From: Methylobacterium organophilum
Lineage (GTDB): Bacteria > Pseudomonadota > Alphaproteobacteria > Rhizobiales > Beijerinckiaceae
Length of the DNA stretch: 64,000 nucleotides
Assembly: GCF_022179465.1 (NCBI RefSeq)
Contig: NZ_BPQV01000001.1
Span: 1 to 64,000, forward strand
Reading direction: 5' to 3'
Below the pieces are notes generated by a model. That model was not told where the DNA came from and made no database searches. It saw nothing but the letters and a program-made list of their open reading frames with translations. The position numbers and the translations under genes are program-made. Positions 1,186 to 45,198 of the stretch are shown piece after piece; positions within the stretch are counted from its first letter, which is position 1; every line of letters begins with the position of its first letter.

Positions 1186-1294
1186 GAACCTGTCGGAGCA
1201 AGCTACGTGAACGTCCGCCTCAGCCCGGTCCCGCCCGCCGTCAAACCACGTGCCCTGCCCGCCGCGGGCGGCGGCAGCTTGGAGGTCTGAACCC

Positions 1295-3655
<2,361 letters not shown>

Positions 3656-9216: not shown

Positions 9217-9230
9217 CGGGTCCAGTCCCC

Positions 9231-16909: not shown

Positions 16910-16951
16910 GCGACGGGGCTCGCGCGCGAGGGCGCGGCGGCCTTCAGGTGC

Positions 16952-17007
16952 CGGCCGGGCGGCACGAGGCGCCCGGCCGCTCGGCCCCGCGCATGGGCGC
17001 GGGGCCG
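16952..17007 (-). terminator. tandem GC-rich hairpins between RTX and exporter genes
   Basis: Bases 16982-16992 pair with 16997-17007 (11-bp perfect stem, 4-base loop), and 16952-16961 pair with 16970-16979 (10-bp stem, 8-base loop). They begin 8 bases after the RTX stop. Neither is followed by a T-run, so they may attenuate transcription or protect the RTX mRNA 3' end rather than terminate fully. Differential expression of substrate over exporter is common in such operons. Confidence 0.5.
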
Positions 17008-17014
17008 CACCCGG

Positions 17015-18472: not shown

Positions 18473-18818
18473 CTGCCGGGTCCTTGTGCCGATGGAGGGA
18501 AGCCGACGTGCCGGGCCGGAGGCGGGCACCTCGGTCTGTACCCCCATGGGGTACACATCACCCAAACCGCGCTTGCGGGCTCGTGGTTTCCGGTCTGCAA
18601 GCAATTCGGGACGCATTGCCGCAGTGTCCGCGCCGTTGGCCGGGGTAAGCGTCGTTACCGGTAGCGGCGGCGCCCGGTCGTGCCTGCGCGCTCCGGGGAG
18701 CGTACCCTGCCCGGGTAAGGGCCGGTCGGCAGTCCGGCGCCAGGGCAGGGCCCGACCGCCGTCCGGCCGCGCCGGTTGCCGCGAAGCCGGCCGTCGCCCG
18801 TCGGCAGGGCCGGCCTCG
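18473..18818. other. 346-bp gap between RTX and endonuclease-like genes
   Basis: No credible gene is seen. It contains the inverted repeat at 18538-18554 and must hold the RTX promoter. The rest is GC-rich sequence without recognisable signals. Confidence 0.6.
18538..18554. promoter_or_regulatory. candidate CsoR-type operator upstream of the RTX gene
   Basis: GTACCC-N5-GGGTAC, perfect in its arms and embedded in a longer palindrome (TGTACCCC-CAT-GGGGTACA, 18537-18555). The 6-5-6 geometry is identical to the sites in front of the CsoR-family regulator gene and the Tat-protein gene. It sits 65 bp upstream of the RTX start codon. Confidence 0.5.
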
Positions 18819-21157: not shown

Positions 21158-21236
21158 GGGCCATCCCTGGCATTCGAACGCATTCTCTGCGGGACCACGA
21201 GATCGCCCGCACCGGAAGGCCCGCCTCGAAGGCCCC

Positions 21237-21260
21237 TTGACCTTCCCATTGTAGGAAGCC
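21237..21260 (+). promoter_or_regulatory. CueR-type promoter for copA
   Basis: TTGACCTTCCCATTGTAGGA followed by AGCC: a -35 TTGACC with the dyad CTTCC-N7-GGAAG in the spacer. It is nearly the same as the site on the opposite strand 80 bp away. It lies about 40 bp upstream of the copA start. The regulator is probably the CueR encoded just downstream of copA. Confidence 0.7.
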
Positions 21261-21297
21261 CCATCTCGGGAGCCATCGACGTTCGAGGGAGACGAGG

Positions 21298-23814
<2,517 letters not shown>

Positions 23815-23945
23815 GCGCCGCCCCGGGGCCACGGTCGGGGACGGCCCCGGCCGGCGCGGGCTCGACCGCGGCGGCGCCGCGTCCTAGACCCGGAGGCGGT
23901 TGCGAAGGCCCGGCCCCGGTCACCCGTCCAGCGGAGGGCAAAGCC

Positions 23946-24389
23946 ATGAACATCGGTGAGGCGGCCAAGGCCTCGGGGGTCTCGGCCAAGATGATCCGCT
24001 ACTACGAAAGCATCGGCCTGATCCGGCCGGCGGCGCGCTCCGAGGCGGGTTACAGGCTCTACGGTGACGAGGACGTGCACGCGCTCCGCTTCGTGCGGCG
24101 CGCCCGCAGCCTGGGGTTTCCCCTGGACGAGGTCGCCGCCCTGCTTGGCCTTTGGCACGACAAGCGGCGGGCCAGCTCCGAGGTGAAGGCCGTGGCAACG
24201 CGGCATGTGCGCGACCTCGAAGCGCGCATCGCCGAGATGCAGGCCATGGTCCGGACCCTCAGCCATCTCGCCGAGCATTGCTCGGGCGACGACCGTCCGG
24301 ATTGCCCGATCCTCGATGACCTCGCCGGCACCGCGCCCCGGTCCCCCGCGGGTCGTCCCGATAACCGGCGACGCGCGGAACACGCCTGA
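23946..24389 (+). CDS. cueR: CueR-like MerR-family copper-responsive activator
   Basis: 147 residues. The winged helix is at 1-70 (MNIGEAAKASGVSAKMIRYY, typical CueR), followed by a dimerisation helix and a metal-binding loop with Cys112 and Cys120 (EHCSGDDRPDCPIL), the same positions and spacing as in E. coli CueR for Cu(I)/Ag(I). The ribosome site GGAGGG precedes ATG 23946. It lies downstream of copA in the same direction and should activate the two promoters at 21132-21260. The C-terminal tail is longer than in E. coli and Arg-rich. Confidence 0.92.
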   Translation: MNIGEAAKASGVSAKMIRYYESIGLIRPAARSEAGYRLYGDEDVHALRFVRRARSLGFPLDEVAALLGLWHDKRRASSEVKAVATRHVRDLEARIAEMQAMVRTLSHLAEHCSGDDRPDCPILDDLAGTAPRSPAGRPDNRRRAEHA

Positions 24390-24828
24390 CGGCATTGACG
24401 CGCAGGCGAGGCCGGCAGCCGCCGGACGACGGGGTCGAGCGACCGGGGACGCGGCCTTCGCTTCCCACCACGCCTGGGATCGGCCTGTCGTTGGCCGCTC
24501 GCCAGGCCAGCGCAGCCAGACGCGGTGCCGCCGCTTGGGCCCGTCGGGACGGCGTGAGGTCTGACGGGATTCGACCTCTCAGGCCAGGTGCGCCAAGCGG
24601 ATCGGTCGGCGCGCGCCGGCCGCCGCGGGGCCGGCTGGCACGGCGGATGACGCTGCGCGGCGGGCAGCGCTCGCCCCGTCGCGCTCGGCGGCGGGCATGC
24701 CTGACATCGGGGTGACCCATGCCGGCTGCGGCACCGCCACGCTGGGGCGGACGCGGCGCCGGCACGAAGGGCAGCGAGCGCGCGGCTTGGGCCCCCTCGC
24801 AAACGCCGCACCGGCGAGGTCGCCGCGT
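24390..24828. other. 439-bp convergent gap after cueR
   Basis: It lies between the 3' ends of cueR and the Cys-rich gene. No gene or clear T-run terminator is seen. Confidence 0.5.
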
Positions 24829-28480: not shown

Positions 28481-28873
28481 CGGCGGCCGGTCCGGGCCGG
28501 CGCAGCGAGCGCCACGGGGTTGAGGGGCGATCCGCACCGGAGCGCGACGCGGGGCCCCGGCTGCAGGTCCCGGTGCGTCGATGGACGCTTGCGCAGGGTC
28601 GATCCCGTCGGCTGCCGCCGCGGACGCCTCGGATGCGGGCGTCCGCCATGGGTCTCCTTGTCCGCGCGGGCGGGACGGGCGGCTGGCGAGGCGCGCGGCG
28701 GGCGGGCGAGCGCGTGGCTCCGGCGCCCGAGCGGGCGGGACGCAGGAACCGGACCCGTGCGGGGGCGCTATGTCGCGCGTCCCGGATTCGGCCCGGGGCG
28801 TGCGCGGCGCTGTCCGGGTCGGCGCCGCGTGATAGGGTCCGGCCGGTCGACCAAGACGAGACAGGACCCAGCC
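28481..28873. other. 393-bp gap upstream of the gasdermin-like gene
   Basis: No gene is supported. It should contain the promoter of the gasdermin-like gene, but no clear -35/-10 pair is seen. Confidence 0.5.
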
Positions 28874-29734
28874 ATGACCGATCCGGTCTTCCGACCCGAC
28901 ATCCAGGATGCGCTGCTGCGGCTGCTGTTCGACAAGCACCGGATCAACCTGCTCAAGGTGCCACGGGAGGACCTGCAGCCCGGCCAAGCGCTCCTGCTGG
29001 CGGGGAGCGGTGCGGTGCCGGACGCGTTCGGGCCCGTCGCGCTCCAGAACCTCGTGCCTGGCCTGGTTCTTCCGGAGGTGGCGCGCGACGCGCGCCTCGC
29101 GGACGTCGACGCCACGTTCTCGGACAGCCAGGAGGGCCGGGTCGAGGGGGGTATCTTCGCGTCCTTCCTGGAGCGGTTCTGGCCGGGCGCGACCCTGCCG
29201 AGCATCTCGGCCAAGGCGGAGGCGAGCGGCGGGCGCAAGTTGTTCCTGCGGTTCTCCAAGGCCACGCGCGACGGCATCGACTTCGCCGCGCTCGGCCGGG
29301 CGCTGGGGCCGAACGCCCCGGACCTTTCCTTCGTCGAAGGCGCTGAGGCCGTGCGGATCTTCGCCGTCGTGGACGTGTACCGCTGCCCGGAGATCGAGAT
29401 GTCCTGGACGGACGACAAGGGCCGCGTGATCGACGCCGAGGCGGTGGTGGCGGAGGCGGCCAAGCTCGGCCTGGGCCACAAGGTGCGCAAGGAGGCGGGC
29501 GGGCTGGTCAAGGTGGCCGGGGACACGGCCCTGGCCTTCGGCGTCCGCCTGATGGAGCTCGTGCGCCGCGACGACGGACCCGGGTTGCGGCTGCGCCTCG
29601 CCCATACCAGGATCGACGTCCTCGGCGGCGGGCCGCGGGACGGCGGCACCGCCGAGGCGGATGCGCGGGATTACAGGCTGCTGGCCGACCCCTGGGCCGG
29701 AGGGTTGGGCATCGGGATCAGGCCGCCGGCGTAG
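28874..29734 (+). CDS. bacterial gasdermin-like pore-forming protein
   Basis: 286 residues. Comparison by eye with bacterial gasdermins shows the family layout in order: an early NLLKVPREDLQPGQALLL (residues 25-42, against a typical V-x-x-LPRxxIQPLxLL); a middle strand GRKLFLRFSKATRDGIDFAA (120-139) followed by a helix; and RIFAVVDVYRCPEIEMSW (161-178) with a helix-strand ending in DTALAFGVRLMELV (217-230). After that comes a 56-residue tail, longer than the usual 20-30-residue inhibitory peptide. Many family members have an acylated Cys near the N-terminus; here the only Cys is 171. In characterised systems a co-encoded protease cleaves the tail, and the N-domain forms large membrane pores that kill the infected cell. 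A CHAT protease is encoded on the opposite strand 1.1 kb away. Identification is from remembered family patterns and needs a profile search. Confidence 0.7.
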   Translation: MTDPVFRPDIQDALLRLLFDKHRINLLKVPREDLQPGQALLLAGSGAVPDAFGPVALQNLVPGLVLPEVARDARLADVDATFSDSQEGRVEGGIFASFLERFWPGATLPSISAKAEASGGRKLFLRFSKATRDGIDFAALGRALGPNAPDLSFVEGAEAVRIFAVVDVYRCPEIEMSWTDDKGRVIDAEAVVAEAAKLGLGHKVRKEAGGLVKVAGDTALAFGVRLMELVRRDDGPGLRLRLAHTRIDVLGGGPRDGGTAEADARDYRLLADPWAGGLGIGIRPPA

Positions 29735-30888
29735 GCCGCCGGCCAGCTCGCGGACCCGGGCAGGGCGGGCGGGTCGCGCGTGATGGCGAGCCGCGACAGA
29801 GAAAGGAAGCGGCGCTCGATCCGCCGACCGTCCACCACGACGTCGAGGATCGCGCTGTCCCCGACGCTGTGGTCGTTCCCGAAACAGACGACCGCCTCGC
29901 GCACCGTTCCCGCCGGCTTCTCGCCGCGGGCGATCACGCGCCGCGACCCGAGGTCGATCCCTGGACCGGAGACGTTGACCTCGACATGCGCCGCGACCGG
30001 GATGCCCTGCCCGAGCCGCACCGTCGCGTTGCCGGACGGCAGGTCGAGCCGGTCCCTCAGGGAAACCGTCGCTCGGTAATGCGCGAGGCCGTCCGGGCCG
30101 GTGCCGCGTGCGGCGTCGGCCCGAAGGGCCACCTCGGCGAAGTGGCGACGTCCGGTGCGCGCGAAATACCGGGTCAAGGCATCGGCCACGGCATCCGGCG
30201 TGGCCCCGCCCGCCGGGACGCCCGTGACGGTCGCCAGGGCGAGCGCCGAGGCGGCGCGCAGACGTGCGTCCGGTGCGGTCAGGAGCGGTTCGAGGGACCT
30301 CTCCACTTCCCGGCGCTCCCGTTCCGCCACGTCGGACCAGGACCTTGTCGCCACCTCCCGCAGCGTCTCGACGGCCTGCCCGGGCCCACCCCACCGGAGG
30401 CTCGCGAGGAGGTCGGGAACGGCGGCACCCGCCAACCTGCCACGCTCCGCCGGTCCGGACCGGTCGACGCTCCGCCAAGCCATCTCGCCAAAGGGCCCGT
30501 CGCCTGGCTCCACCGAGACGATCAGCACGGGCTGCAGGACCTGGCGGTGGCCTCGCATCCGCCGGGAGTTCTGGCGCCGCCGCTTCTTGAACGAGACTGT
30601 CTTCGGTCCCCGCTTCTCGGGCAGCAGTTCCGCGATGACCCGCGCGTTCGGCACGTTCGGGCTGCCGACGACGGTGCCCTCGCCCGAGCCGAGCATGAGG
30701 ATGTCGTCGAACGCGTGGAAGCGGCGTCCGTCCGCGTCGCGGACCGTGGCCGCCAGGTAGTCCGAGCGGGCGACGTTCAGCCGGTCGCCGGTGCGGACGA
30801 CGTACTGCTTCCCGCCGGTCCGCAGGACGGCCCACACCGCGGGCTCGGCTGCCGCCGTCCCGGTGCCGCCCCTCTTATGCCGCTCCAT
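29671..30888 (-). CDS. ribosomal protein bL21-domain fusion protein in the gasdermin/CHAT locus
   Basis: 405 residues from ATG 30888, overlapping the CHAT gene end by 14 bp. Residues about 17-124 are an almost complete bL21 domain: WAVLRTGGKQYVVRTGDRL at the start and VSFKKRRRQNSRRMRGHRQV at the end, the most conserved RNA-binding part of bL21. Residues about 150-245 are helical and HEAT-like (SLEPLLTAPDARLRAASALA). Residues about 248-370 look beta-rich (NATVRLGQGIPVAAHVEV). True rplU proteins are about 100 residues and sit with rpmA, so this is not the housekeeping gene. Its 3' end overlaps that of the gasdermin-like gene by 64 bp, tail to tail. A sensor, ribosome tether or decoy substrate for the protease are possibilities (inference). 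Confidence 0.8.
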   Translation of the reverse strand: MERHKRGGTGTAAAEPAVWAVLRTGGKQYVVRTGDRLNVARSDYLAATVRDADGRRFHAFDDILMLGSGEGTVVGSPNVPNARVIAELLPEKRGPKTVSFKKRRRQNSRRMRGHRQVLQPVLIVSVEPGDGPFGEMAWRSVDRSGPAERGRLAGAAVPDLLASLRWGGPGQAVETLREVATRSWSDVAERERREVERSLEPLLTAPDARLRAASALALATVTGVPAGGATPDAVADALTRYFARTGRRHFAEVALRADAARGTGPDGLAHYRATVSLRDRLDLPSGNATVRLGQGIPVAAHVEVNVSGPGIDLGSRRVIARGEKPAGTVREAVVCFGNDHSVGDSAILDVVVDGRRIERRFLSLSRLAITRDPPALPGSASWPAAYAGGLIPMPNPPAQGSASSL

Positions 30889-32128
30889 GCAGAGCTTCCC
30901 CGCGCGCCGTGGCGACCTCGCCCTCGATGGCCCCGGGCAGGGCGAAATCGTCCAGGGCATGGAAGGAATAGCAGAGGCTGGCGACGGATCCGTCCCGGTG
31001 GAGGCTGTCGCGTCGCGCTTGATGCAGGCTCTCCGCGACCGTCAGGCGCTCGCCCCGCACCCCGGGCGCGCGGGAGAATGCGTGCCGGTAGAACCGGCGC
31101 GCGAATTCCGTGGCGAAGCGTTCGTTGACGAGGCAGTGGGTCGCGATCACGCCGCCCGCCTGCATGAGGTGCAGGTTGTCCGGGAAGTTGCTGTCGGCGA
31201 TGACCCCGGGGGCCGCCGATGCGCAGATGTTCAGGAACACGAGAGGCTCCCCGACCAAGGGACGGGCCTCCTTCTGGTGCGGGCTGAAGAAGTCGGGCCG
31301 GACCTCCAGCCCGTTGTCGAGCACGAAGTAGTGCTGGCCCGCGAAGCTTTCCATGTGGCTGGTGACGTGCCAGACCGACCTGAGCTGGCCCAGCGCGCGG
31401 AACAGGGACGCGAGGTCGGCCACGGCCATCGGCTCCCTGTCCAGGCCGAGCAGGGGCGTGTCCTCCCGCGTCGTGCAGGCGGCGCCAAGGTCCTCGAAGA
31501 CGGCGAAGATGCTGGCCTCGTCGCGTCGGGACACGGAGGTGACGCGCGTGGACCCGAGCAGGCCGACGGATGGCGCGGCGTCGTCCGCCTCCCTCTCTTC
31601 CTTATCAGGCCTCGGCGCGTGGATCAGCGGGGCCCGGCTGCCGAGGAAGCGCTCGACGTCGAACCCCGAGCCCACGCGCCCGTAGTGCAGGGCGTCGAGC
31701 GGGATGCCGGCCAGGTCGCTGTCGAACGTGATCGACCTGAGGTTCGGGTGATCGAGGTAGAAGTCCAGGTCGGCACGGACCTTGGCCCCCTTCTCGGGAT
31801 CCGTGTGGCGGAAGAGGTTGCTGAAGAGGCTCACGGCGGCGTTCTGGAAGGATTGCAGCCTCGCCGCCGACGCCGGGTCCTGGGCCTCGGGTGCCCAGGT
31901 GCGCCCGGCGAACTCGGCCAGGCCCTCGGCGAACGCGCGGACGGCGTCGGCCAGCGCACCGCGCAGCGGGCCTCCGTGGAAGCGCAGGCTGTCGAGCTGC
32001 CCCGCCCCGAAGACGCTGACTTCGGTCCTCGCGGGCGAGTGGTCGCTCGTGGACGTGGCGATGCGCATTCGGAACGCGCCGGCTGCGATCTCATCCCGCT
32101 TTCGGCGACCGCCATGCCGACGAGCCAT
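30875..32128 (-). CDS. CHAT-domain (caspase-like) protease
   Basis: 417 residues from ATG 32128, overlapping the upstream gene by 38 bp; ATG 32068 would avoid the overlap. The N-terminal 180 residues include a helical segment and RSITFDSDLAGIPLDALHYG, typical of the region before a CHAT core. The core follows: the His motif SVWHVTSHMESFAGQHYFVL (His254, His258) and the Cys motif PLVFLNICASAAPG (Cys302), then HLMQAGGVIATHCLVNERFA, the usual strand-helix after the Cys. CHAT proteases are caspase relatives, and co-encoded CHAT or caspase proteases activate bacterial gasdermins by cleaving their C-terminal tail. The neighbours in its operon are the bL21 fusion and a 448-residue unknown protein, which may control it. 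Confidence 0.85.
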   Translation of the reverse strand: MARRHGGRRKRDEIAAGAFRMRIATSTSDHSPARTEVSVFGAGQLDSLRFHGGPLRGALADAVRAFAEGLAEFAGRTWAPEAQDPASAARLQSFQNAAVSLFSNLFRHTDPEKGAKVRADLDFYLDHPNLRSITFDSDLAGIPLDALHYGRVGSGFDVERFLGSRAPLIHAPRPDKEEREADDAAPSVGLLGSTRVTSVSRRDEASIFAVFEDLGAACTTREDTPLLGLDREPMAVADLASLFRALGQLRSVWHVTSHMESFAGQHYFVLDNGLEVRPDFFSPHQKEARPLVGEPLVFLNICASAAPGVIADSNFPDNLHLMQAGGVIATHCLVNERFATEFARRFYRHAFSRAPGVRGERLTVAESLHQARRDSLHRDGSVASLCYSFHALDDFALPGAIEGEVATARGEALHGAA

Positions 32129-33437
32129 CCTGACCGTTGTCCTCGTAAACCTCGACCGTTCTCTGGATCTTCGAAACGATGCGGTCGCGAGTCAAGAACG
32201 TGAATCGAAGCGCGTGCCTCCCGCCTTCCCGGGCGGTCGCCTTGAAGGTCAGCGGGTGCCCTACCCTGCCCTGCTTGACCCCGGGCGAGACCACGACGCC
32301 GTTGCCATCGGCGAACACGGTCACCGTCTCGGCAGCGCGCTCACGGCTCGCGATGCCCAGGAGCTGGTGGACCTCGCCGTCGAGGATGGCCGAGACGGCG
32401 ACGCTCGCCCCCTTGCCGAGCCGCACGGCGGTCGTCGCCGTCCCCGTGCCCGGCGGCCCGAAGACGACCTGACCGCGCAGGGCGTCGGGTCGCGTGCCCG
32501 GCAGGAGACGCCGGAGCGTCGGCCGATGCAGCGGGACGAAGCAGAGCGCCTCGCGGCGCTCGCGCGCGCCCCGCCCCGCCGCCGCGGGAACGGCCCCCCG
32601 CGTCAGCGCCAACGGCGGCAGCGGAACGGCCATCAGGCGGTGAACGCCCAGGCCGAGGCGCGGCAGGCACAGCGCATCGGCTTGCCGCGGCGGAAGCAGG
32701 GCGGGCAGATCCATCTGCCTCATGCGGAAGAGCTGGCTTTCCAACCTGGACAGGTATCGTTCGGCCACCTCGCCCCATCCGAGCTGCCGCCCGGCGGCGA
32801 AATGCTGCGCGGCGCGCCGGAGATGCCGTTTCGCCCGCTCCAGGCGCGCCTCGGAGCCGTTCCCCGCCTCCGCAAGCTGCCGGCCGCGCTCGAAGTGAAG
32901 CAGGCCGTCGACGAGCCGCGCGTCCCGCGCGCCGCGGAAGGCCACGCCGTCGGGGGCCGGTCGATCCGGGTGGCGGCCCACGGTCCCGTCGCGCAGGTCG
33001 CCGTGCAGCGCCGACCAACCGAGCGGCGGACCGGGCCTGATATCGAACGCGATGCAGGCGTTGGCCTCCGGCGACGGGCGGAACGTCGCCAGCGACGTGT
33101 CCCGCAGAAGCTTGGACCAGTGGGCGAGGCCGCGGGCCCGGAAGCCGGTGGGCAGCGCGGGCAGCAGCCAGGGTGGCCCGAGGCAGATCAGCTCGTCGCG
33201 CGACCGATCCGGCAGCAGGACCAAATCGTCGTCGCCGACGATGGCGTACCCGGTCGACGCATCCGCTATGAGGTGGCGGCGGTCGGACAGGGTCAGCGCG
33301 ACGCCGACGTCGTCGCCGCCCCGGTCGAAGGCCAGCCAGCACCGCACCACCGGCGGGCGGCCGCCCGCGACCGGCGAGGCCGCGAACAGGTCCGCCTGCG
33401 AGGTCTCGTCGAACGCCGTGGTCGACCAAGCCTCCAT
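32091..33437 (-). CDS. unknown protein, first gene of the CHAT/bL21 operon
   Basis: 448 residues, no family recognised. The N-terminal 170 residues look mixed alpha/beta (VRCWLAFDRGGDDVGVALTL). About 175-250 is helical and charged, rather like a TPR-type segment (LLHFERGRQLAEAG, RAKRHLRRAAQHFAAG). About 320-435 is beta-rich. GPPGTGTATT (327-336) resembles a P-loop but has Thr where the Lys must be and sits between strands. The beta-rich part (TTAVRLGKGASVAVSAIL, 335-352) resembles a segment of the bL21 fusion (NATVRLGQGIPVAAHVEV), suggesting a shared domain. Position as first gene before the protease makes it a candidate sensor or inhibitor (inference). Confidence 0.6.
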   Translation of the reverse strand: MEAWSTTAFDETSQADLFAASPVAGGRPPVVRCWLAFDRGGDDVGVALTLSDRRHLIADASTGYAIVGDDDLVLLPDRSRDELICLGPPWLLPALPTGFRARGLAHWSKLLRDTSLATFRPSPEANACIAFDIRPGPPLGWSALHGDLRDGTVGRHPDRPAPDGVAFRGARDARLVDGLLHFERGRQLAEAGNGSEARLERAKRHLRRAAQHFAAGRQLGWGEVAERYLSRLESQLFRMRQMDLPALLPPRQADALCLPRLGLGVHRLMAVPLPPLALTRGAVPAAAGRGARERREALCFVPLHRPTLRRLLPGTRPDALRGQVVFGPPGTGTATTAVRLGKGASVAVSAILDGEVHQLLGIASRERAAETVTVFADGNGVVVSPGVKQGRVGHPLTFKATAREGGRHALRFTFLTRDRIVSKIQRTVEVYEDNGQDGSSAWRSPKAG

Positions 33438-33695: not shown

Positions 33696-33970
33696 TCATG
33701 CGGCCCTCGTTCCGGCCCCCCGGCGCAGGAACGCGGCGGCCTCGGCCGCGGGCGCGGGCTTGCCGAACAGGTAGCCCTGCGCCTCGCCGCAGCCGGACAG
33801 CCGCAGCGCCCCGAGCTGCCGCTCCGTCTCGACGCCCTCGGCCGTGACCGCGGCGCCGAGGGAGGCCCCCAGGCCGGCGATGGCCCCAACGATGGCCGCC
33901 GTGCCCGGCTCGTCCACCGCCTCGACGAAGGAGCGGTCGATCTTGATCCGGTCGAGCGGGAACTTCCGGT
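33696..33970 (-). pseudogene. C-terminal remnant of an EAL-domain c-di-GMP phosphodiesterase
   Basis: The residues FPLDRIKIDRSFVEAV, TAEGVETERQLGAL and GEAQGYLFGKP are the last third of an EAL domain (the D-x-I-K-I-D-R-S-F loop and the E-G-V-E-T motif). Upstream of RKFPLD the frame runs into unrelated sequence at the left end of the tnpB element. No N-terminal EAL or GGDEF part is found on the other side of the element, so the gene was truncated by insertion and deletion. It is not expected to be functional. Confidence 0.8.
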
Positions 33971-35340
33971 TCTTCGTCGTTTGGGGTTGATCGACCTTCG
34001 GGCGGGCTTGACGCGTTCCCACTCCGTTCTACTCTGGTCGCGTGATCCTGACGTACCAGCAGAAGCTCAGCCGACCGCCGCCCAGCACCGCCTCCTCGCC
34101 GAGGCGCTGGAGCGTCAGCGCCTGCTCTACAACGCCGCCCTGTAGGAGCGCCGCGACGCCTGGCGGCTCGGGCGCAAGGCCTTCACCCGCCTCGACCAGC
34201 AGAAGAGCCTCACCGTCATCCGCGCCGACGACCCGGAAGGCCACGGCGCCGATCCGGTCACCATGGGCCGTTGGACGCTCAAGCGCGTCGAGGACGCATT
34301 CACCGGCTTCTTCGGACGGGTGAAGCGGGGGCTCAAGCCTGGCTTCCCGCGGTTCAAGCCTGCGTCCCGCTGGAGCTCTTTCGGCCTGCTGGAAGCCACC
34401 GGCCTGCGGCACGAGGGCGACCGCATCCGGCTCAAGGGCTTCGGCCGCCCGATCCGCCTCAACCACGACCGGCCGCTGCCGTCCGACGCGAAGATCCTGG
34501 GCGTGACGTTCACGCGCAAGGGCCGGCACTGGTTCGTCTGCATTACCGTCAAGACGAGCGAAGTCGTGGCGACCACGCCGCCTGCGGGCGAGGCGGTGGG
34601 CGGCGACCTGGGCGTCGAGGCGCTGCTGACGCTGTCCACCGGCGAGCGCATCCCGAACGTCCGCCCGTCCTCGCGTCGCGAGCGCGAGATCCGCGTCTCC
34701 CGCCGGGCCCTCGCCCGCTGCCGCAAGGGCTCGAACCGGCGGCGCAAGATCAAGGCTCGGCTGGCGCGTCAGTTGCAGGCGGTGGCGAACACGCGGGACC
34801 AGTACCTGCACCGCGTCTCGGCGCGGCTGACGCGCGAGCACTCGCTCGTCATGCTGGAGGACCTGCGCATCCGGAACATGACCCGCTCGGCCGCCGGGAC
34901 GGTCGATGAGCCCGGAGCGAACGTCCGCCAGAAGAGAGGGTTGAACAGGTCCATCCTGGATGCGGGATGGGGCAAGCTCGTGCAGTTCGTCCGCTACAAG
35001 GCTACCAGGGCCGGTGGCGAGTTGATCTGCGTCGACGCCAGGGGGACGTCGCAGGAATGCCGGCAGTGCGGGGCGGTTGTGCCAAAGCCGCTGTCCCTGC
35101 GCCGCCACGTCTGCCCGTGCGGGCTGAACGAGCATCGCGACGTTAACTCGGCCGGGGTGATCCGCGACCGGGGTCTCGCGGTGAAGGCCGCGAGCGAGGG
35201 GGGTCAGCCCCTCGGGGGCGCCAACGTGGGCCGTCGGGCCGTGCGTCGTCCCGGGACGCTCCTCGCCGCCTGAGGGCGGCGCTGGAGAACGTCGGATGGG
35301 GGCATCAACCTCAAATGACGAATGACCGTGAATTGTTAAG
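33971..35340 (+). mobile_element. IS200/IS605-superfamily tnpB-only element, decayed
   Basis: The element holds a tnpB pseudogene and no tnpA. The left boundary is placed where EAL homology stops; the right boundary is approximate, in the locally AT-richer stretch after the gene. A 7-bp stem (CGCCGCC/GGCGGCG, 35264-35281) lies at the tnpB stop, where the guide-like right-end RNA of these elements is usually transcribed. Confidence 0.6.
34042..35273 (+). pseudogene. tnpB: tnpB (RNA-guided nuclease of IS200/IS605) with frameshift and nonsense codon
   Basis: The first codons (VILTYQQKLS from GTG 34042) are in one frame. Homology then continues in another (PTAAQHRLLAEALERQRLLY), so there is a frameshift near 34070, and a TAG at 34143-34145 interrupts NAAL-stop-ERRDAWR. 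From ATG 34263 a 336-residue frame remains open. It keeps the RuvC-like Asp in VGGDLGVEALLTLS, the Glu in VMLEDLRIRNM, the zinc-finger Cys pairs (CRQCGAV and CPCG) and the final Asp in EHRDVNSAG. Full-length TnpB is about 400 residues. The nuclease core could still be made from 34263, but the N-terminal RNA-binding part would be missing. Confidence 0.82.
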
Positions 35341-38048: not shown

Positions 38049-39150
38049 GCCCGGCAGGGCCCTGGACCCGCCGGCGCTCGTCGGGCCCGAGCGTCCGACC
38101 CGGAGAGCCAAGCGCCCCCGATTCAGGGGCCGGTGTCCCTGCTCCGCGGCCCCCGGATACGGGGCCGCGGCATGCCCTCGCCTCGGGGCGCCAGCCGTCG
38201 GGGGCAGGCCGCTCGCATGACGCAACCGGCGAGCTGCCTGAAGGCGTCAATGTCGAGGAAACCAGGGCCGTGAGAAGGCGTGCACGAGCGTCGCCCTCCT
38301 CGTGGCAGCCATGCACCGCCCGCCACCGGCGCGACCGCGGCCCCGCCGGGCCCGTCCCAGCCCCCGGCCGGTCGATGATGCGAAACGCCCGGCGCCTCGT
38401 CTGCTCGTCGAGATGCACGTGCCCGCCTTGGGCGGCCCGGGCACGGGTCACGGTCCGTGACCTGGGCGCCTTCGCCGAGCCATGACACCTCCGCCAGGCG
38501 GGGTACGGGTCCGGTCAACATCGGTCGCGGCTCGGGCCCCTCCGACCAAGTCGGCGCGAGCCGGCCCGCGCAATCCGCCACCCAGCCTCCGGCCCAGGTA
38601 CCCTCCTCGCTTACGCCGCGGGCCCGGAAGGACCCGCCGGCTTCCGCTCGCCCGACAAGGAGGAGGCGCGGGCCGGTGGCCGACCGGTGCGTGCTTCGGA
38701 GGGCCAGCTGGCCGACGAACCCGCCGGGCGCCGCGCCATGCTCGACCGTGGGCTCCCCCCCAAGCAGAGCCCTGATACAGGTCGCGGGTTCCGGGCGGCT
38801 GTGAGACACGCGGAGGGTTCAGACCCCGGTCGACTCCCGGTCCACGTCACCGCCCTCCCCGAGCTTCGCCGGACTGGGGCTGGGCCTGAGAGCTGCGCAA
38901 TCCTGTGGCTGCCCGGGCCAGGTCTGGCTTGGCACGCGCCTCTCCCCTCGCGGACTCCTGGCCGAAGATCGGGGTGGCGGGTCGCAGCTTGTCCCTTTCA
39001 CGACCGCCCGGACGATCAACGCGTGCTCCCGGGCGGAGCAGCACTCTGTCGATTCGGGCCGGCGCCACTCGCAAGCGGCGGTCCCGGCGGGCCCCGCTGG
39101 GGTGCCCGATCCCCGGCGGCGCGGCTCCGTCCCAACCCTCCGGTGCTCGC
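38049..39150. other. 1.1-kb stretch without a credible gene
   Basis: Long open frames occur on both strands because of the GC content, but none has a ribosome site, domain motif or natural composition. It may be decayed sequence. Confidence 0.5.
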
Positions 39151-40539
39151 ATGTCTCCTTCCGGCCACGTCCCGTATGCCTCGAACGCGCCCGACGCTTC
39201 TGCCGCCGGCATGCCCTCCGTCCCGGAAGGGGAAATCCGGCGGGCGATGCGGGCCGTCGTCGCGGTTTGTCCGCCCGAATCGGGCATGATCCTGAACGTG
39301 TTGCTGGACAACCTTCTCACCGCCAGCCGAGCGGGAGGCATCCTGCGGTCCAAGCTGCACGGCCTGGACGTCGGGTTGCGCAAGCACCTCAGGCAAACGT
39401 GGCTCGACGGGGTCGTCGTGCCGCTCGCGAGGACGCGCAACCCACTCCATCGCGCCGCCTCCTCCGCCCTGCCGCAACTGCGGGACCCACGGGACGTCTC
39501 CGGCCTCCTCGCGGCGGTGAGACAGATCGCGGGCGAGGTCCCGGAGCACACCACGGCGCGGGAGCACCTCGACGGCGCCGTCCGCTTCCTGGAAGCGCTC
39601 CCGATCCTGATGCGCGCGGTCGAGGCCCTCGAAGCCCGGACCTTCGCCCAGGGTGCGGGCCGCTCGCGAGCGGTCGGGTACAATTCGGGCGCACGCGACG
39701 ACACGCGTGCCCGTCAGGTGCGGTCGGCCGCCCATGAGTTCCGCAAAGCGGCGAGGAAGGCGCTCGCGCCCCTCGTGCTGCGCCTGGCGGACGCCGTCTT
39801 CGAGGCGGAGCTCGGAGCGGTCCGGAGCGCCGCGTTCGCCCGAGCCGCGCCGGTCCTGCGGTCACCCCCGGTCGGCGGTCCGAGGAAGCGGGGCTTGGCG
39901 GGGCCACCCTGGCGCCGTCGCCTGCTCGACGGGCTGCAGGGCGATATCTGGGGCGGCTTCGGAGCGGCGCTGGAAACCGTGCTGCGGCGCCATCCCGGGC
40001 TGGAGGTCACGGAGATCGCCGTCGACCGCAGCGGCGACCTGTGCGGGCGGGCTCGGGCGGTCCTGACGCGGCACGGGGTCCGGTTTGCGGTCGCCACCTG
40101 CTTCGACCTTCAGGTCGGCTCGATGCGGCACAGGGCGGAGGATCTCGTCGGACCGGGCCACCGGGTCGACCAGCCCACCTGGGCCGAGGTGGACGCGTGT
40201 CTCGACGCTCATGTTCCGCCGGAACTCGACACCGCCTCCTTCCGCCTGATGCGCCACATCCTGCAACGGGACGGTGGCGACGGCTTCGTGCTCGATGCCT
40301 ATGCGGAGGACCAGCTCGTGATCGCCTGCCGCGCCGGTGGCCGGCTTCCGGAAGAATTCGCGGACTGGCTCGTCGAGGCCGCAGACGCGTTGGGGGTGAC
40401 CCTGAGGTTCGCCGCGGACGACGGTGGCCCACCGGTTGCCGAACTGGCGCGCGTCGGCTTCGCGTGGGCGGAGGGAAAGGAGCGGTTCTTCATGACGCGG
40501 TCGGCCGTGCCCGACCCGGGAACCGGCCCCCTGCCCTGA
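39151..40539 (+). CDS. hypothetical protein of 462 residues
   Basis: The start is placed at ATG 39151 (MSPSGHVPYASNAPDAS); ATG 39211 is an alternative and neither has a strong ribosome site. The N-terminal half is helical (IRRAMRAVVAVCPPESGMIL, REHLDGAVRFLEALPILMRA). The C-terminal half is mixed alpha/beta (FRLMRHILQRDGGDGFVLDA, PEEFADWLVEAADALGVTLR). No family or catalytic motif is recognised. The stop codon abuts a degraded tnpB element, so the natural C-terminus may have been altered by that insertion. Confidence 0.5.
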   Translation: MSPSGHVPYASNAPDASAAGMPSVPEGEIRRAMRAVVAVCPPESGMILNVLLDNLLTASRAGGILRSKLHGLDVGLRKHLRQTWLDGVVVPLARTRNPLHRAASSALPQLRDPRDVSGLLAAVRQIAGEVPEHTTAREHLDGAVRFLEALPILMRAVEALEARTFAQGAGRSRAVGYNSGARDDTRARQVRSAAHEFRKAARKALAPLVLRLADAVFEAELGAVRSAAFARAAPVLRSPPVGGPRKRGLAGPPWRRRLLDGLQGDIWGGFGAALETVLRRHPGLEVTEIAVDRSGDLCGRARAVLTRHGVRFAVATCFDLQVGSMRHRAEDLVGPGHRVDQPTWAEVDACLDAHVPPELDTASFRLMRHILQRDGGDGFVLDAYAEDQLVIACRAGGRLPEEFADWLVEAADALGVTLRFAADDGGPPVAELARVGFAWAEGKERFFMTRSAVPDPGTGPLP

Positions 40540-40540
40540 G

Positions 40541-41060
40541 CGGCGTGGTGCCACCACCACGCTCGCGCTCTCGACCGGCCAGCGAACGACGCTGCCCGAG
40601 AGCCTGGGGCGGATCGAGGCGCGGAAGTGGAAGGCGCAGAAGGTCGTCTCGCGTCGCAAGCGCGGCTCGAACCGACGCCGCCGGGCCCAAGTTCGCGTCG
40701 CGCGCCTGCAGGCGCGGCAGGCCCGCATCCGGCGCGACTTCCACCATCGCGAGGCCCTGGGCGTCGCCCGCCGCTTCGGCGTCGGCCGAGGAGCCGGGCC
40801 GCAACGTCCGGCAGAAGGCAGGGCTGAACGGCGCCATCCTGAACGCGCGCTGGCATCAGTTCGCGACGATCCTGAGCTACAAGATTGAGGAGAGAGGCGG
40901 TCAGGTCGCGACCGTTCCGGCTCGGTTCACGAGCCAGACCTGCGCCGCGTGCGGCGTCGTGGATGCGAGGAGCCGCGGGAGCCAAGCGCGCTGTCGACTG
41001 GAGGGGACCTCGCGGTTCCCGAAAATCCCCGTCGTTCACGGCGGGGAAGATGTTAGGGTG
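40541..41060 (+). pseudogene. tnpB: second tnpB relic with right-end hairpin
   Basis: Pieces of a TnpB coding sequence survive in different frames: TTTLALSTGQRTTLPES, then KVVSRRKRGSNRRRRAQVRV, then after a frameshift PGRNVRQKAGLNGAILNARW and FTSQTCAACGVVDAR from the zinc finger. The N-terminal third and the second Cys pair are missing. The end (CCCCGTCGTTCACGGCGGGG, about 41026-41045) is a hairpin like those at the right ends of IS200/IS605 elements. Not functional. Confidence 0.75.
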
Positions 41061-41091
41061 TTGTCGAGCTTAGATGCCAGGGGGAGCTGAC

Positions 41092-41613
41092 ATGGTGATC
41101 GTCAGGATGCCGGGTGGCGATGTCGAGTCTATCGCTCCGGACGAGCTGCTCTGGATGCGGCAGGCCTTTGACCACGAGTTCAAGGATGCGGTGATGCTCC
41201 GCATCACGGGTGACCGGATCTATTCCGTGGAAACGGTGGCGTCCCTGGCCGCGAAGTTCGCCGCAGCCGGGGCCGCCATGGCTCGGCTGACCCCTCCCGA
41301 GGGCGCCATCGAGATGATGGTCAGCGCCGAACGGGTCCGCGAGGTCGAGCCGCCGAGCCCCGCCATCCACCACGAGGGTGCCGGATCGGTCCTCAAGTTC
41401 GGTCCCAAGCTGATGCTCGCCGTGCGTGAGAGCGAGGCCCAGGCGAAGTCCATCCTGGCTGAGGCGGTTAAGGGTCGGCCGCCGGCACCTGCGGCATTGG
41501 CGGCGGCGGCCCTGGGAGGCGCCATCGTCGGTGCTGCGGTCGCCGTAGCTGTGACGGCGCCGGGCGCGGGAGGCCCGGATCCCGAGGCACAGGAACGCCC
41601 GGGACCAGCATGA
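41092..41613 (+). CDS. hypothetical protein with C-terminal membrane helix
   Basis: 173 residues from ATG 41092, with GGGGGAG six bases upstream; ATG 41074 is the longer option. The sequence is soluble-looking up to about residue 135 (DAVMLRITGDRIYSVETVAS, LKFGPKLMLAVRESEAQAKS). It then has a small-residue hydrophobic helix (ALAAAALGGAIVGAAVAVAV) and a short acidic tail, so it could be tail-anchored or membrane-associated. No family is recognised. It starts right after the second tnpB relic. Confidence 0.5.
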   Translation: MVIVRMPGGDVESIAPDELLWMRQAFDHEFKDAVMLRITGDRIYSVETVASLAAKFAAAGAAMARLTPPEGAIEMMVSAERVREVEPPSPAIHHEGAGSVLKFGPKLMLAVRESEAQAKSILAEAVKGRPPAPAALAAAALGGAIVGAAVAVAVTAPGAGGPDPEAQERPGPA

Positions 41614-42092
41614 GAGCCACGGCGGATCGCCCGGCCCGCTCGTGCCCCCTCGCCCGGCCCGCCATCCATGTGCCGCCGGGGCGGGGGCCGCTGTGTCCGC
41701 GCACCGGGAGTGACAGCCGGCGGGCCACAGGTGGCGATGCAAGCGACGCGCGACCGCGCGCCGCCTCCGGTACGGGACGGCCCAGGGCTTTGAGCAGGAC
41801 ACGCCGGTCGGGCAGATCTCCGGCATGAGCCGCCCCTCCGGGTTCGGTGGGGACGGGGCGAGGCAGGGACCTCCGGATGGGCCGGCCAACACCGATTTCG
41901 TTCTCTCTATGTTCCAATCTTGGAGCGCCTGCCCTAGTGTCTTGCTGGCGCGAGCGGCACCGTACCGAACGGAATCCGTGGACAACCGCAGGATCCTGGC
42001 GTGACGCGTCGGAGGGCCGGAACGTAGACCGGGGCGCACGGTGTTGTGGGTGGGCGATGGACCGGGCGTCCTCGCCGCAACGGGATCGAAGG
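41614..42092. other. 479-bp gap upstream of the dGTPase gene
   Basis: No gene is seen. The dGTPase frame is open back to 41847 without a ribosome site, so a longer start is unlikely. A promoter is expected here, but none is recognised. Confidence 0.5.
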
Positions 42093-43538
42093 ATGGCCGA
42101 TCAACTCGACTGGAGACGCCTCCTCAACGCGCAGCGGCGCAAGGGAAAGGCCGCAGGCAGAGCCTACACGGCGCGGCTGGGCGAGGACCGGACCGAGCAC
42201 GAACGTGACCACGACCGTATCCTGTTCTCGACCCCGGTGCGGCGCCTCCAGGACAAGACGCAGGTCTTCCCGTTGGAACGCAACGACAGCGTCCGCACCC
42301 GGCTAACCCACAGCCACGAGGTGGCGAACATGGCGCGGAGCATGGGAACCACCCTCGCCTTCGTGCACGGCGGGGCGCTGGGTTTCCCCGGGGAGGTCGA
42401 GCCCCTGCGCAACGTGCCCGCCCTCCTGGAGGCCATCGGGCTCGCCCACGACCTCGGCAATCCGCCGTTCGGACATCAGGGCGAGACCGCGATCCAAACC
42501 TGGGTGAAGCGGCACTCCGTGCCGCGCAAGGATGACCCGGCCTCGTTCGACATCTTCGACGCGCCGGACCTGAGCGAGCCGATGCGCCGTGATTTCCTGA
42601 AATTCGAGGGCAACGCGCAGGCGTTCAGGCTGCTGACGCGATTGCAGATCCTGAACGACGACTTCGGCCTGAACATGACCTATGCCTTCCTGGCGGCCCT
42701 GATGAAGTATCCCGTGCCGTCGGACGCGGTCGACAAGACCTCCCAGGCAAGGAAGAAGTTCAACTTCTTCCAGTCGGAGGCCGAGATCGCCGCCGAGGTC
42801 TGGGCCGAGACCGGCTTGCGGGAGGGCGTCCGCCATCCCCTGACCTTCGTGATGGAGGCTTGCGACGACATCGCCTACTCGGTGGTGGACGTCGAGGACG
42901 CGGCCAAGAAGAAGCTGATCAACTTCAACGTGCTCATGGCTTGGCTGCGTCACGACGCGTGCGACGACGAGTTGACGCTCGACGTCTGCGAGCGGGCCGA
43001 GCGCAGCCACGCCGAGTTCCGGGACGCGGGATTGTCGCCCGGGGAACTCGACGACATCTCGATGCAGATGTTCCGCGTGGACGCCATCGGGAAGATGGTG
43101 CGGGCCGCGGTTGGGGCGTTCGTGGCGAACCGGGATGCCATCATGGCCGGCGCGTTCGACAGGGAGCTGATGGCGGCCTCCGAGGCGGTCGTGCTGTGGA
43201 CCTCGTTGAAGCGCTTCGCCAAGTTTCACGTCTACCGCCACCGCAGCGTCCTCGAAGTCGAGCTCGACGGGCACCGGACCGTTCACGAGCTCATGGACAT
43301 GTTCTGGAAGGCCATCATCGAGCGCAAGGATCCGGACGACCTGCGCTCCGACCGCGAGGCGTTGCCGGCCTACGTGTATTCCCGGATCTCGGAGAACTAC
43401 CGGCGCGTGGCCGAGTCGCCCGGGAACGCGATGCCGATGCGCTACCGCGAACTGCAGCTCGTCACCGACATGATCTCGGGTATGACCGACACGTTCGCGG
43501 TGTCCCTGCGCGACGACCTGAGGCGGCACCATGGCTGA
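42093..43538 (+). CDS. dGTP triphosphohydrolase-like HD-domain protein
   Basis: 481 residues from ATG 42093 (MADQLDWRRLLNAQ); ATG 42057 would add 12 residues. The start matches E. coli-type Dgt: RILFSTPVRRLQDKTQVFPL, then RNDSVRTRLTHSHEV with the first metal His (His73), and AIGLAHDLGNPPFGHQGE with the HD pair (His119, Asp120). The family hydrolyses dGTP or other dNTPs to nucleoside and triphosphate, and dGTPases of this kind are known phage-defence effectors that starve replication. The gene overlaps the following nucleotidyltransferase by 8 bp, so the two are coupled. Substrate specificity cannot be read. Confidence 0.88.
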   Translation: MADQLDWRRLLNAQRRKGKAAGRAYTARLGEDRTEHERDHDRILFSTPVRRLQDKTQVFPLERNDSVRTRLTHSHEVANMARSMGTTLAFVHGGALGFPGEVEPLRNVPALLEAIGLAHDLGNPPFGHQGETAIQTWVKRHSVPRKDDPASFDIFDAPDLSEPMRRDFLKFEGNAQAFRLLTRLQILNDDFGLNMTYAFLAALMKYPVPSDAVDKTSQARKKFNFFQSEAEIAAEVWAETGLREGVRHPLTFVMEACDDIAYSVVDVEDAAKKKLINFNVLMAWLRHDACDDELTLDVCERAERSHAEFRDAGLSPGELDDISMQMFRVDAIGKMVRAAVGAFVANRDAIMAGAFDRELMAASEAVVLWTSLKRFAKFHVYRHRSVLEVELDGHRTVHELMDMFWKAIIERKDPDDLRSDREALPAYVYSRISENYRRVAESPGNAMPMRYRELQLVTDMISGMTDTFAVSLRDDLRRHHG

Positions 43539-44376
43539 CCTTGGCTCCCCCGTCCGCGACGGCGCTGAGCTGTGCCGGCGGATGCAGGCGTTCCTGGCGG
43601 ACGAGGCTCGCGGGGGCCCCGAGATCGCGGATCTGATCGGCCATCTCGGGCAGGTGGGCGAGGTTGCGATCTTCGGCGGCATGGCCCGGGATATCGCCCG
43701 GGGCGGGGCTGCGGCCTTCGCATCGGACGTGGACCTGGTCGTGCACGCGCCGCCGGAGCGCTTGGCGGAGCTGATGCGGGACGGCGCGGCCGTTCGGAAC
43801 CGCTTCGGCGGCTACCGCATCGCCGGGCGCCGCCACTCGTACGACGTCTGGGCCCTACCCTCCACCTGGGCGGTCCAGTCCGGGCACGTGCAGGCCGCCC
43901 ACCTGACCGACCTGGTGCACACCACCTTCTTCGACTGCGACGCCGTGCTTTACCTGTGCGGCTCCCGCCGGGTTCACCACGGACCGCGTTTCACCGCCTG
44001 GCTGCGCGACGCCATCGTCGACACCAACCTGGAGGAGAACCCGAACCCGCACGGGGTCGTGGCCCGCGCGTTACGGATCCTCCTCGAACATCGGCAGGCC
44101 GTCGGGCCCGGCTTGGAGAGGTATCTCCGCAGGATGGCCAAGGGGCACGCGGGCTGCCTCGATGGGGACCTCGCATCACGCCTGTCACGCATCCTCGCAG
44201 GCCTGCGCCCGCTGCCCGACGGCCTGGGAGCCACGGCCGCCGCGCGGCACCCGGGTGCGGGTGGTGAGGCGCCCGGGCGGGGCGAGCGGGACCGGGCGAA
44301 CCGGCATGGCTGCCCCGACCGTTCCCATGTTCCGTGGCCGGCGCCGGGGCGGTTGAGGTGTCCCGGATCATCCTGA
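43531..44376 (+). CDS. nucleotidyltransferase-like partner of the dGTPase
   Basis: 281 residues, ATG inside the end of the dGTPase gene. The N-terminal half has a polymerase-beta-type motif: EVAIFGGMARDIARGG (Gly49-Gly50, Arg53-Asp54) followed by SDVDLVVHAPPERL (Asp66, Asp68), the G-G-x-x-R-D and D-x-D layout of CCA-adding/poly(A)-polymerase-like enzymes. The middle third is helical. The last 60 residues are low-complexity Arg/Gly/Pro and may be a read-through extension. A real CCA enzyme is much longer, so this is an accessory transferase. Coupling with a dGTPase suggests a two-gene nucleotide-based module, perhaps toxin/antitoxin-like (inference). Confidence 0.65.
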   Translation: MADLGSPVRDGAELCRRMQAFLADEARGGPEIADLIGHLGQVGEVAIFGGMARDIARGGAAAFASDVDLVVHAPPERLAELMRDGAAVRNRFGGYRIAGRRHSYDVWALPSTWAVQSGHVQAAHLTDLVHTTFFDCDAVLYLCGSRRVHHGPRFTAWLRDAIVDTNLEENPNPHGVVARALRILLEHRQAVGPGLERYLRRMAKGHAGCLDGDLASRLSRILAGLRPLPDGLGATAAARHPGAGGEAPGRGERDRANRHGCPDRSHVPWPAPGRLRCPGSS

Positions 44377-45198
44377 TCCGGCCCGCGTGCTCCCGCGTTC
44401 GAGGCTGATGCGCCTCGCGAGTTGCCGGGCCCTATCCATGGAACCGGCCTTGCGCTGAGGTGGACGCCGCCACCCCTGGTCACCGGACCGAGGTTAAGCG
44501 TCAATCGCCCCATGGCAGCGCGCGGCGGGCCGCAAGGCATGGTGGCCGCGTGCGAGCATGGCCGTGTGGCGGCGCGTTTCCCGGACCGGAACGTCCTCGG
44601 AGAGGACCGGCCGACGGGGTACGACGCCGCGACGAGGAAGAAGGGCGCGGGCCTGTCGCCGCGCTCGTGGGTCCAAGACACGACGGTGATGCGTACTTCC
44701 TGACCGAAGGCGGGCCATTCGCACCTGACCTCGATTGCGGTCGAGTGTTCTATGAACCTGGCGAGGACTTCGGGATCATCAACGATCCGACGGACGGGCG
44801 CGACCCGCCGTTCAAGAGCGAGCCTGGCTCGTTGAGAAATGCTCGGCGACGGGTGAAGCCGAGAGGCCGATTTCCGGCCGACGTGCCTCCCGGTGGGCGT
44901 AGTTGGCGGGGCGCGGTGCATCCGGGGGGATGCCGCGGCCGCGCCGTTATTCACCAAGCTTTGCTATTTTCCCTACGCGTAAGCACCAGATTACCTTTAA
45001 GCAAAGACAGCCGACTGTCCGTGGATCTCCCGAACCAGGTGAGATCTCAAGCTGGCGTTGGCTTTCACGTCGGAAGTAGGCACTTGCGCCTGTCCCGTGC
45101 TATAACGAGCGCCACGGATGGCGCGCGCTCTTTTCGCCCTCGGTCTCGAACGCCAGCTGCCTGTTGAACGCACCAGGATGCCCGGGAAGAACACTTAA

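What the first reader, a model, noticed from the sequence alone, without database searches (positions are those of the whole stretch)
28874..33437. Gasdermin-like gene facing a CHAT-protease operon with two unfamiliar partners
Seen: a 286-residue protein with the ordered sequence landmarks of bacterial gasdermins converges on a three-gene operon whose middle product is a CHAT protease with His258/Cys302 in place. Known: bacterial gasdermins are held inactive by a C-terminal peptide and released by co-encoded caspase-like, CHAT or trypsin-like proteases, killing phage-infected cells. Inference: this is a gasdermin defence system whose regulatory parts (a 448-residue unknown and a bL21-domain protein) are not ones I know from described gasdermin loci.
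Basis: partly seen in the sequence, partly recalled or inferred. Interest (0 to 1): 0.95.

Follow-up and report, generated by a model that had tools for sequence, protein, structure and literature searches.

The report
Gasdermin operon carrying a ribosomal-protein mimic
A rare four-gene unit in Methylobacterium pairs a bacterial gasdermin (a predicted membrane-pore death protein) and a caspase-like protease with a protein that carries a diverged copy of ribosomal protein L21 with its basic loop kept, which suggests, but does not show, a cell-death system that watches the cell's own ribosomes.

Summary
The 28874-29734 product is a bacterial gasdermin (PADLOC bGSDM 2.2e-22). The facing operon encodes a 448-aa orphan, a CHAT protease (His258/Cys302; profile match 6.1e-12) and a protein with a full bL21 domain (Pfam 1.2e-19); the host has its own rplU elsewhere. 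The operon L21 keeps the basic loop (16 of 17 residues as in host rplU) while the rest is 28 of 84 identical.

The gasdermin is in 6 of 112 genus genomes. It lies in a tract 98-100% identical between species whose rplU region is 74-81% identical to ours. Two further genomes with the same flanks lack the four genes as one block. Changes against the 99% copy show purifying selection, strongest in CHAT.

Best reading: gasdermin effector plus CHAT activator, with the L21 fusion as a ribosome-directed sensor or tether. The domain identities are well supported; the mechanism, above all the sensing step, is inference. No structure could be predicted. New variant of a known kind.

The parts
28874..29734 (+). 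Bacterial gasdermin, 286 aa; pore-forming domain about residues 11-246; one Cys (171), none at the N terminus
   Evidence: PADLOC bGSDM 2.2e-22; NCBIfam 4e-15, below its cut-off; PDB 7n50, 8sl0; Cys count. An 11-bp deletion at 28689-28699 in G611 argues against the longer TTG start at 28520.
29561..29731 (+). Gasdermin tail, residues 230-286: Gly/Pro/Asp-rich stretch (251-267), then a hydrophobic end; inferred protease-sensitive linker and inhibitory peptide
   Evidence: Sequence and hydropathy; bGSDM profile match ends at 246. Role is inferred.
29671..30888 (-). bL21-fusion protein, 405 aa from ATG 30888 (429 aa if from 30960)
   Evidence: Pfam PF00829 1.2e-19; translation; starts compared.
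30514..30834 (-). bL21 domain
   Evidence: PF00829 positions 2-98 of 99; 42 distinct PDB bL21 sequences matched, best 4.1e-15.
30541..30591 (-). Conserved basic loop of the bL21 domain (17 residues), 16 of 17 identical to host rplU
   Evidence: Alignment with 33 rplU products.
29674..30501 (-). C-terminal part of the bL21-fusion protein (residues 130-405), no known domain
   Evidence: No Pfam or PADLOC hit there; NCBIfam only XopZ at 0.03, 12 bits against a cut-off of 1300; no PDB match up to E = 1.
30875..32128 (-). CHAT-family protease, 417 aa; His258 codon 31355-31357, Cys302 codon 31223-31225
   Evidence: Pfam CHAT 0.0071, under cut-off; profile comparison 6.1e-12; residue numbers.
32091..33437 (-). 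448-aa orphan protein, first gene of the operon; its Walker-A-like GPPGTG stretch at residue 327 has no lysine and varies (G330A in G611)
   Evidence: No Pfam or NCBIfam hit; PADLOC IetA 0.029 only; PDB AFG2 homologue 0.021 at best.
28769..33351 (.). Block absent from G589 and G598, whose flanks match on both sides
   Evidence: blastn of L079 and L080 against the window.

Best explanation
A four-gene, death-type defence unit. The gasdermin waits in an inactive form, held by its short C-terminal tail. The CHAT protease cuts that tail when activated, and the freed gasdermin forms membrane pores that kill the cell. The bL21-fusion protein aims the protease complex at 23S rRNA through its retained basic loop, on the large ribosomal subunit or on its precursors, so that a phage-caused disturbance of the host ribosome releases or switches on the protease. 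The 448-aa protein is an adaptor or brake between sensor and protease. Shown here: domain identities, the CHAT Cys and a His at the expected place, gene overlap, presence and absence as one block in a small set of genomes, selection on the genes taken together, and selective retention of the L21 loop. Inferred from known gasdermin systems: tail cleavage and pore formation. Inferred without precedent that I found: ribosome sensing. Inferred without any direct evidence: the role of the 448-aa protein.
For: Gasdermin and CHAT identity. Overlapping genes read as one operon. Block present whole or absent as a unit. Pooled purifying selection, 10 of 27 changes non-synonymous against 0.73 expected. 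L21 loop 16 of 17 as in host rplU, the rest 28 of 84; 23 of 28 residues invariant in 33 rplU products kept, the five lost all outside the loop. The L21 domain is on a very long branch (2.77 changes per column), so the loop was kept while the rest diverged. Second L21 copies are rare: 4 of 289 class genomes by my reading of the rows, three of them with 5-10% contamination. A dGTPase-type defence gene lies about 8 kb away.
Against: No experiment and no structure. The L21 loop could be kept for ordinary ribosome incorporation. The selection signal is strongest in CHAT (9 of 17 synonymous changes); without it 7 of 15 changes are non-synonymous, p = 0.04. NCBIfam gasdermin and Pfam CHAT scores lie under their cut-offs. 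No N-terminal cysteine for lipidation. All intact copies are 99-100% identical, so no diverged four-gene relative tests which parts are fixed. G589 and G598 also lack other stretches of the tract, for example most of window 21163-24828, so losing a block there is not special to these four genes.
Confidence: 0.5

Rival explanations
1. Gasdermin-CHAT defence as above, but the L21 domain is only an RNA-binding module that senses phage RNA or tethers the complex, without regard to the state of the ribosome.
For: The retained part is the basic loop; five residues invariant in 33 rplU products are lost elsewhere, and there is an 8-residue insertion, so docking into the ribosome may be lost.
Against: The loop is nearest to the Methylobacterium form of rplU (16 of 17 in all six genus rows; 11-15 of 17 in the 27 others), which a general RNA binder would not need. 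Descent from a Methylobacterium-like L21 would explain this too.
Confidence: 0.25
2. The L21 part is a spare or replacement ribosomal protein carried as immunity or back-up; it protects the host's translation and has no part in triggering the protease.
For: Full-length L21 domain, 23 of 28 invariant residues kept.
Against: It is fused to about 275 residues of unknown sequence, lies inside the operon overlapping CHAT, and is absent together with the gasdermin in G589 and G598.
Confidence: 0.12
3. The L21 fusion is a chance gene fusion and the system works with gasdermin, CHAT and the 448-aa protein alone.
For: Only closely related copies are known, so no long-term conservation of the fusion can be shown. 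The bL21 gene alone has too few changes against G611 (2 synonymous, 2 non-synonymous) to show selection.
Against: Long divergence with a conserved loop and an open frame in the copies read whole.
Confidence: 0.1

Closest known systems
Bacterial gasdermin with adjacent protease (bGSDM systems: Runella, Bradyrhizobium and others)
   Same: Short gasdermin without a large C-terminal domain, near a caspase-like/CHAT protease gene; review PMC9612521 (passages) describes this arrangement.
   Different: No N-terminal cysteine here, whereas the majority of bGSDMs are lipidated there (PMC9612521, passages); convergent gene order; bL21-fusion and 448-aa partners are not among the operon parts named in the passages read.
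CARD-NLR gasdermin systems (Lysobacter enzymogenes type)
   Same: Multi-gene gasdermin system with protease and presumed sensor.
   Different: No trypsin-like protease, NLR/STAND ATPase or CARD found by Pfam, PADLOC or NCBIfam. Primary paper not held; known from PMC13236601 passages.
CHAT-controlled fungal gasdermins (HET-Q2-like clusters)
   Same: CHAT protease gene next to a gasdermin gene (PMC10989679, PMC12881547 passages).
   Different: Fungal proteases often carry NLR, WD40, TPR or ANK sensors in the same chain; here the candidate sensor is a separate bL21-fusion protein.
bL21 ribosomal protein (rplU)
   Same: Full domain and basic loop.
   Different: 28 of 84 identity to host rplU outside the loop, 8-residue insertion, about 275-residue C-terminal extension, a second locus besides the cell's own rplU.

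Membership tests
Bacterial gasdermin (bGSDM) | Profile similarity over the pore-forming domain | tested here: met
   PADLOC bGSDM 2.2e-22, residues 11-246 on profile 3-231 of 257; NCBIfam 4e-15 yet 56 of the 100 bits of its cut-off
Bacterial gasdermin (bGSDM) | Protease gene close by | tested here: met
   CHAT gene is the second gene along, in the facing operon
Bacterial gasdermin (bGSDM) | C-terminal tail that inhibits and is cut off | not testable with these tools
   A tail of suitable length exists; inhibition and cleavage need experiments
Bacterial gasdermin (bGSDM) | Gasdermin fold in a predicted structure | not tested
Lipidated bGSDM (the majority, not all) | N-terminal cysteine for palmitate | tested here: not met
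   Single Cys at 171
CHAT protease | His and Cys of the catalytic pair in CHAT context | tested here: met
   Cys302 aligned to the CHAT Cys; His258 lies outside that alignment and is placed by eye
CHAT protease | Profile similarity to CHAT domains | tested here: met
   hhalign 97.5%, 6.1e-12 over 266-397; Pfam 16.3 bits, under its cut-off of 24
CARD-NLR gasdermin system | NLR-like/STAND ATPase, CARD and trypsin-like protease | tested here: not met
   No such family hit in any of the four products; a CARD too diverged for profiles is not excluded
bL21 ribosomal protein | bL21 domain over its curated cut-off | tested here: met
   70.8 bits against 27
bL21 ribosomal protein | Is the cell's only bL21 | tested here: not met
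   Separate rplU at G000 C2:179525, 124 bits
bL21 ribosomal protein | Binds 23S rRNA | not testable with these tools
   Loop kept 16 of 17; that this loop contacts rRNA is recalled, from no call

The most novel reading that the evidence does not exclude
A gasdermin immune system that guards the ribosome: a mobile, diverged copy of ribosomal protein bL21 occupies or monitors the L21 site of the large subunit or its precursors, and loss of that state during infection unleashes a CHAT protease and a gasdermin pore. This would be a ribosomal protein turned into an immune sensor.
Probability: 0.3. Interest if true: 0.93.

Novelty: new variant of a known kind. Interest (0 to 1): 0.8.

Why it matters
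What triggers bacterial gasdermin systems is largely open: the 2022 review PMC9612521 says that the activating cue of the Lysobacter system is unknown (passages), and a 2026 paper, PMC13236601, still writes that it senses infection 'somehow' (passages); the 2025 primary paper on it was not held. Here one part points to a ligand, the L21 site of 23S rRNA, so sensing can be tested directly: does the protein sit on ribosomes, and does disturbing ribosomes trigger death? If yes, bacteria would guard their own ribosome by way of pyroptosis-like death.

Tried and rejected
ATPase in the 448-aa protein: PADLOC IetA (0.029) and PDB AFG2-type (0.021 at best) hits are weak; the GPPGTG stretch has no lysine and varies (G330A in G611). 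Rejected as an NTPase.

Relation between the 448-aa protein and the C-terminal part of the bL21 fusion, suggested by similar short motifs: no significant match.

G113 match to the bL21-fusion C-terminus (3.8e-4): tblastn of the fusion protein on L008 gave nothing convincing in the part of the output that I printed, and L008 holds other genes. Dropped, so 1 of 199 there and not 2.

Relatives outside the genus: gasdermin, CHAT and 448-aa protein only in our own of 199 family genomes. That sample held ten genomes of the genus and missed the five other carriers found later, so its negatives are a weak bound. bGSDM profile in 385 class genomes: own only. Plasmids at 1e-5 for gasdermin, 448-aa, CHAT and the C-terminal part of the bL21 fusion, none; at 10 for gasdermin and 448-aa, none; CHAT at 10 gave 5 weak hits. 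The L21 domain alone matched 27 plasmid records at 0.01, all under 60% identity, those annotated being called L21; I did not look at their neighbours. Viral contigs, four queries (for bL21 the C-terminal part only): none. The single genome-contig scan gave 4 near-identical loci; its patterns find close relatives only.

Origin of the L21 domain: the tree of 34 rows leaves it on a long branch, its place unsure and its letter make-up flagged as unlike the rest.

flank search: 112 of 112 genomes match, most through EAL paralogues; 7 match over the full 617 bp.
Full report
What is there. Four genes occupy 28874-33437. The gasdermin (+) faces a three-gene operon (-) in the order 448-aa protein, CHAT protease, bL21-fusion protein. 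Neighbours in the operon overlap by 38 and 14 bp (the second if bL21 starts at ATG 30888), and the bL21 and gasdermin genes overlap tail to tail by 64 bp. Codon-position GC looks coding in all four.

Identity of the effector. PADLOC's bGSDM profile matches residues 11-246 at 2.2e-22. NCBIfam's prok_gasdermin matches at 4e-15 but at 56 bits, under its cut-off of 100. Two solved bacterial gasdermins match weakly (0.0032, 0.0077). Pfam gives none. The protein is a diverged member. It has one cysteine, at 171, so the N-terminal lipid anchor described for the majority of bGSDMs (PMC9612521, passages) is absent. After residue 246 come 40 residues, with a Gly/Pro/Asp-rich stretch and a hydrophobic end, which fits a linker and inhibitory peptide, by inference.

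Identity of the protease. Pfam's CHAT hit is under cut-off (0.0071). I therefore made a profile from six plasmid sequences: L112 and L113 pass the Pfam CHAT cut-off; L111 and L115 are annotated CHAT, although the L111 stretch gave no Pfam hit; L114 and L116 are annotated hypothetical and were taken for their similarity to L111. The CHAT protein matches this profile at 97.5%, 6.1e-12 over residues 266-397, with Cys302 on the CHAT cysteine; the 448-aa protein gives 0.1%. Four of the six records (those of L111-L114) had turned up by weak similarity to our protein, so the test is not fully independent. His258 sits 44 residues before Cys302 and is placed by eye against the CHAT His.

The bL21 part. 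The domain scores 70.8 bits against a cut-off of 27, and 42 distinct PDB bL21 sequences match. The genome has its own rplU elsewhere. I aligned the operon domain with 33 rplU products; three of 36 loci gave no sequence by my pattern and were dropped (L035, L049, L062). In the 17-residue basic loop it is 16 of 17 identical to host rplU, and outside it 28 of 84. The six genus rows share 16 of 17 with it, the 27 others 11-15 of 17 (two of them, L052 and L055, 15); outside the loop all 33 share 24-36 of 84, the genus no more than others. Of 28 columns invariant in rplU it keeps 23, and all those that fall in the loop. In a tree it stands on a very long branch, 2.77 changes per column, of unsure place. 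So the basic loop was held while the rest drifted. In 289 class genomes, 267 have an L21 match and, by my reading of the rows, 4 have two: our own and three genomes with 5, 5 and 10% contamination. That the loop contacts 23S rRNA is recalled knowledge of bL21, not tested.

The 448-aa protein. Pfam and NCBIfam do not recognise it; weak ATPase hits are rejected.

Spread. The genus is Methylobacterium in the wide sense: the genome-contig scan found the gasdermin in Methylobacterium symbioticum SB0023/3, Methylorubrum rhodesianum DSM 5687, M. podarium DSM 15083 and, cut off by a contig end, M. zatmanii LMG 6087, at 99-100%. In the genus search it is in 6 of 112 genomes. The 448-aa protein is whole in 5 of 112, and only its first 31 codons are matched in two more, G589 and G598; G610 has the gasdermin on a contig that ends inside the block. 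Window 1-40640 is 99.8% identical to G617, and window 3-44576 is 98.7% and 98.3% in two pieces to G611. In an rplU region, over 1.7-2.0 kb, our genome is about 81% identical to four of the five and 74% to the fifth; gyrB next to the tract is 89% to G617. The tract is thus recently shared between species. Its right end lies by gyrB in our genome and in G617, and by a trxB-like reading frame in G611 (recognised by eye). G617 and G611 share about 43 kb more to the left at about 98%, but their own rplU regions are 92-96% alike, so that part says less.

One unit. G589 and G598 keep the tract in the same order at 71-90% identity but lack window 28769-33351, with 212 bp in its place. What remains is sequence upstream of the gasdermin gene and the first codons of the 448-aa gene. 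This looks like loss of the whole block, though insertion is not excluded. Other stretches of the tract are also missing there, among them most of window 21163-24828 (the second P-type ATPase region) and the TnpB stretch, so indels in this tract are common. Of 112 genus genomes, 7 hold the complete right flank: 5 with the 448-aa gene and these 2 without. All four frames are whole in the three other copies that lie on one contig, L009, G617 and G611.

Selection. Between our genome and G611 the four genes differ by 17 synonymous and 10 non-synonymous changes (sites 1267 and 3401; p = 1e-4). CHAT gives 9 of the 17; the other three genes together have 8 and 7 (p = 0.04). Overlaps between genes were counted twice.

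How it most likely works. By analogy with known systems the CHAT protease frees the gasdermin by cutting its tail. What is new is the partner. A mobile operon carrying a diverged L21 that keeps its basic loop in nearly the host's own form is best explained by a need to bind the host's ribosomal RNA. I propose a ribosome guard or tether; the rivals are a plain RNA sensor, a spare ribosomal protein, and an idle fusion. None was tested by experiment.

Literature. Searches for gasdermin with L21 (9 papers), Methylobacterium with gasdermin (11 papers, 10 listed), gasdermin with ribosomal protein and sensor (0), CHAT domain with ribosomal protein and conflict (0), and L21 with phage-defence words (20 of 573 listed, none of them holding 'ribosomal protein L21') showed no account of such a system in their listings. 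The library holds open-licence papers only, and the two primary gasdermin papers are not held. Papers seen as passages: PMC10989679, PMC9612521, PMC12881547, PMC13236601.

Noticed in passing
41847-43538 (+) and 43531-44376 (+): A dGTPase-type defence gene (PADLOC dGTPase 5e-75) overlapping a 281-aa gene with no Pfam or PADLOC hit, at the right end of the shared tract beside gyrB.
   Followed up: partly
L024:641-7220 (G617), against window 40641-44675: At the same place by gyrB, G617 holds different genes, among them an FRG-domain gene (3.7e-23) and an Ogg-HhH-type gene (1.1e-10): perhaps a hot spot for defence genes.
   Followed up: partly
33696-35328: A TnpB-type (IS605 OrfB) gene lies beside the EAL tail of a GGDEF-EAL gene, of which only that tail was seen in the window; G611 has 2.4 kb more there with the GGDEF part, and G589 has the gene joined up.
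   Followed up: partly
1250-3655 and 21298-23814: Two heavy-metal P-type ATPase genes in one tract, about 67% alike in DNA over 1.4 kb.
   Followed up: no
13740-18616 (-): HlyD-type, ABC exporter and RTX-repeat protein genes in a row, which looks like a type I secretion unit with its own substrate.
   Followed up: no
7738-12813 (-): Genes for proton-antiporter/NADH-dehydrogenase-like membrane subunits inside the shared tract.
   Followed up: no
38905-40539 (+): A gene of up to 544 aa with no Pfam or PADLOC hit, kept at about 90% DNA identity in G589 and G598.
   Followed up: no
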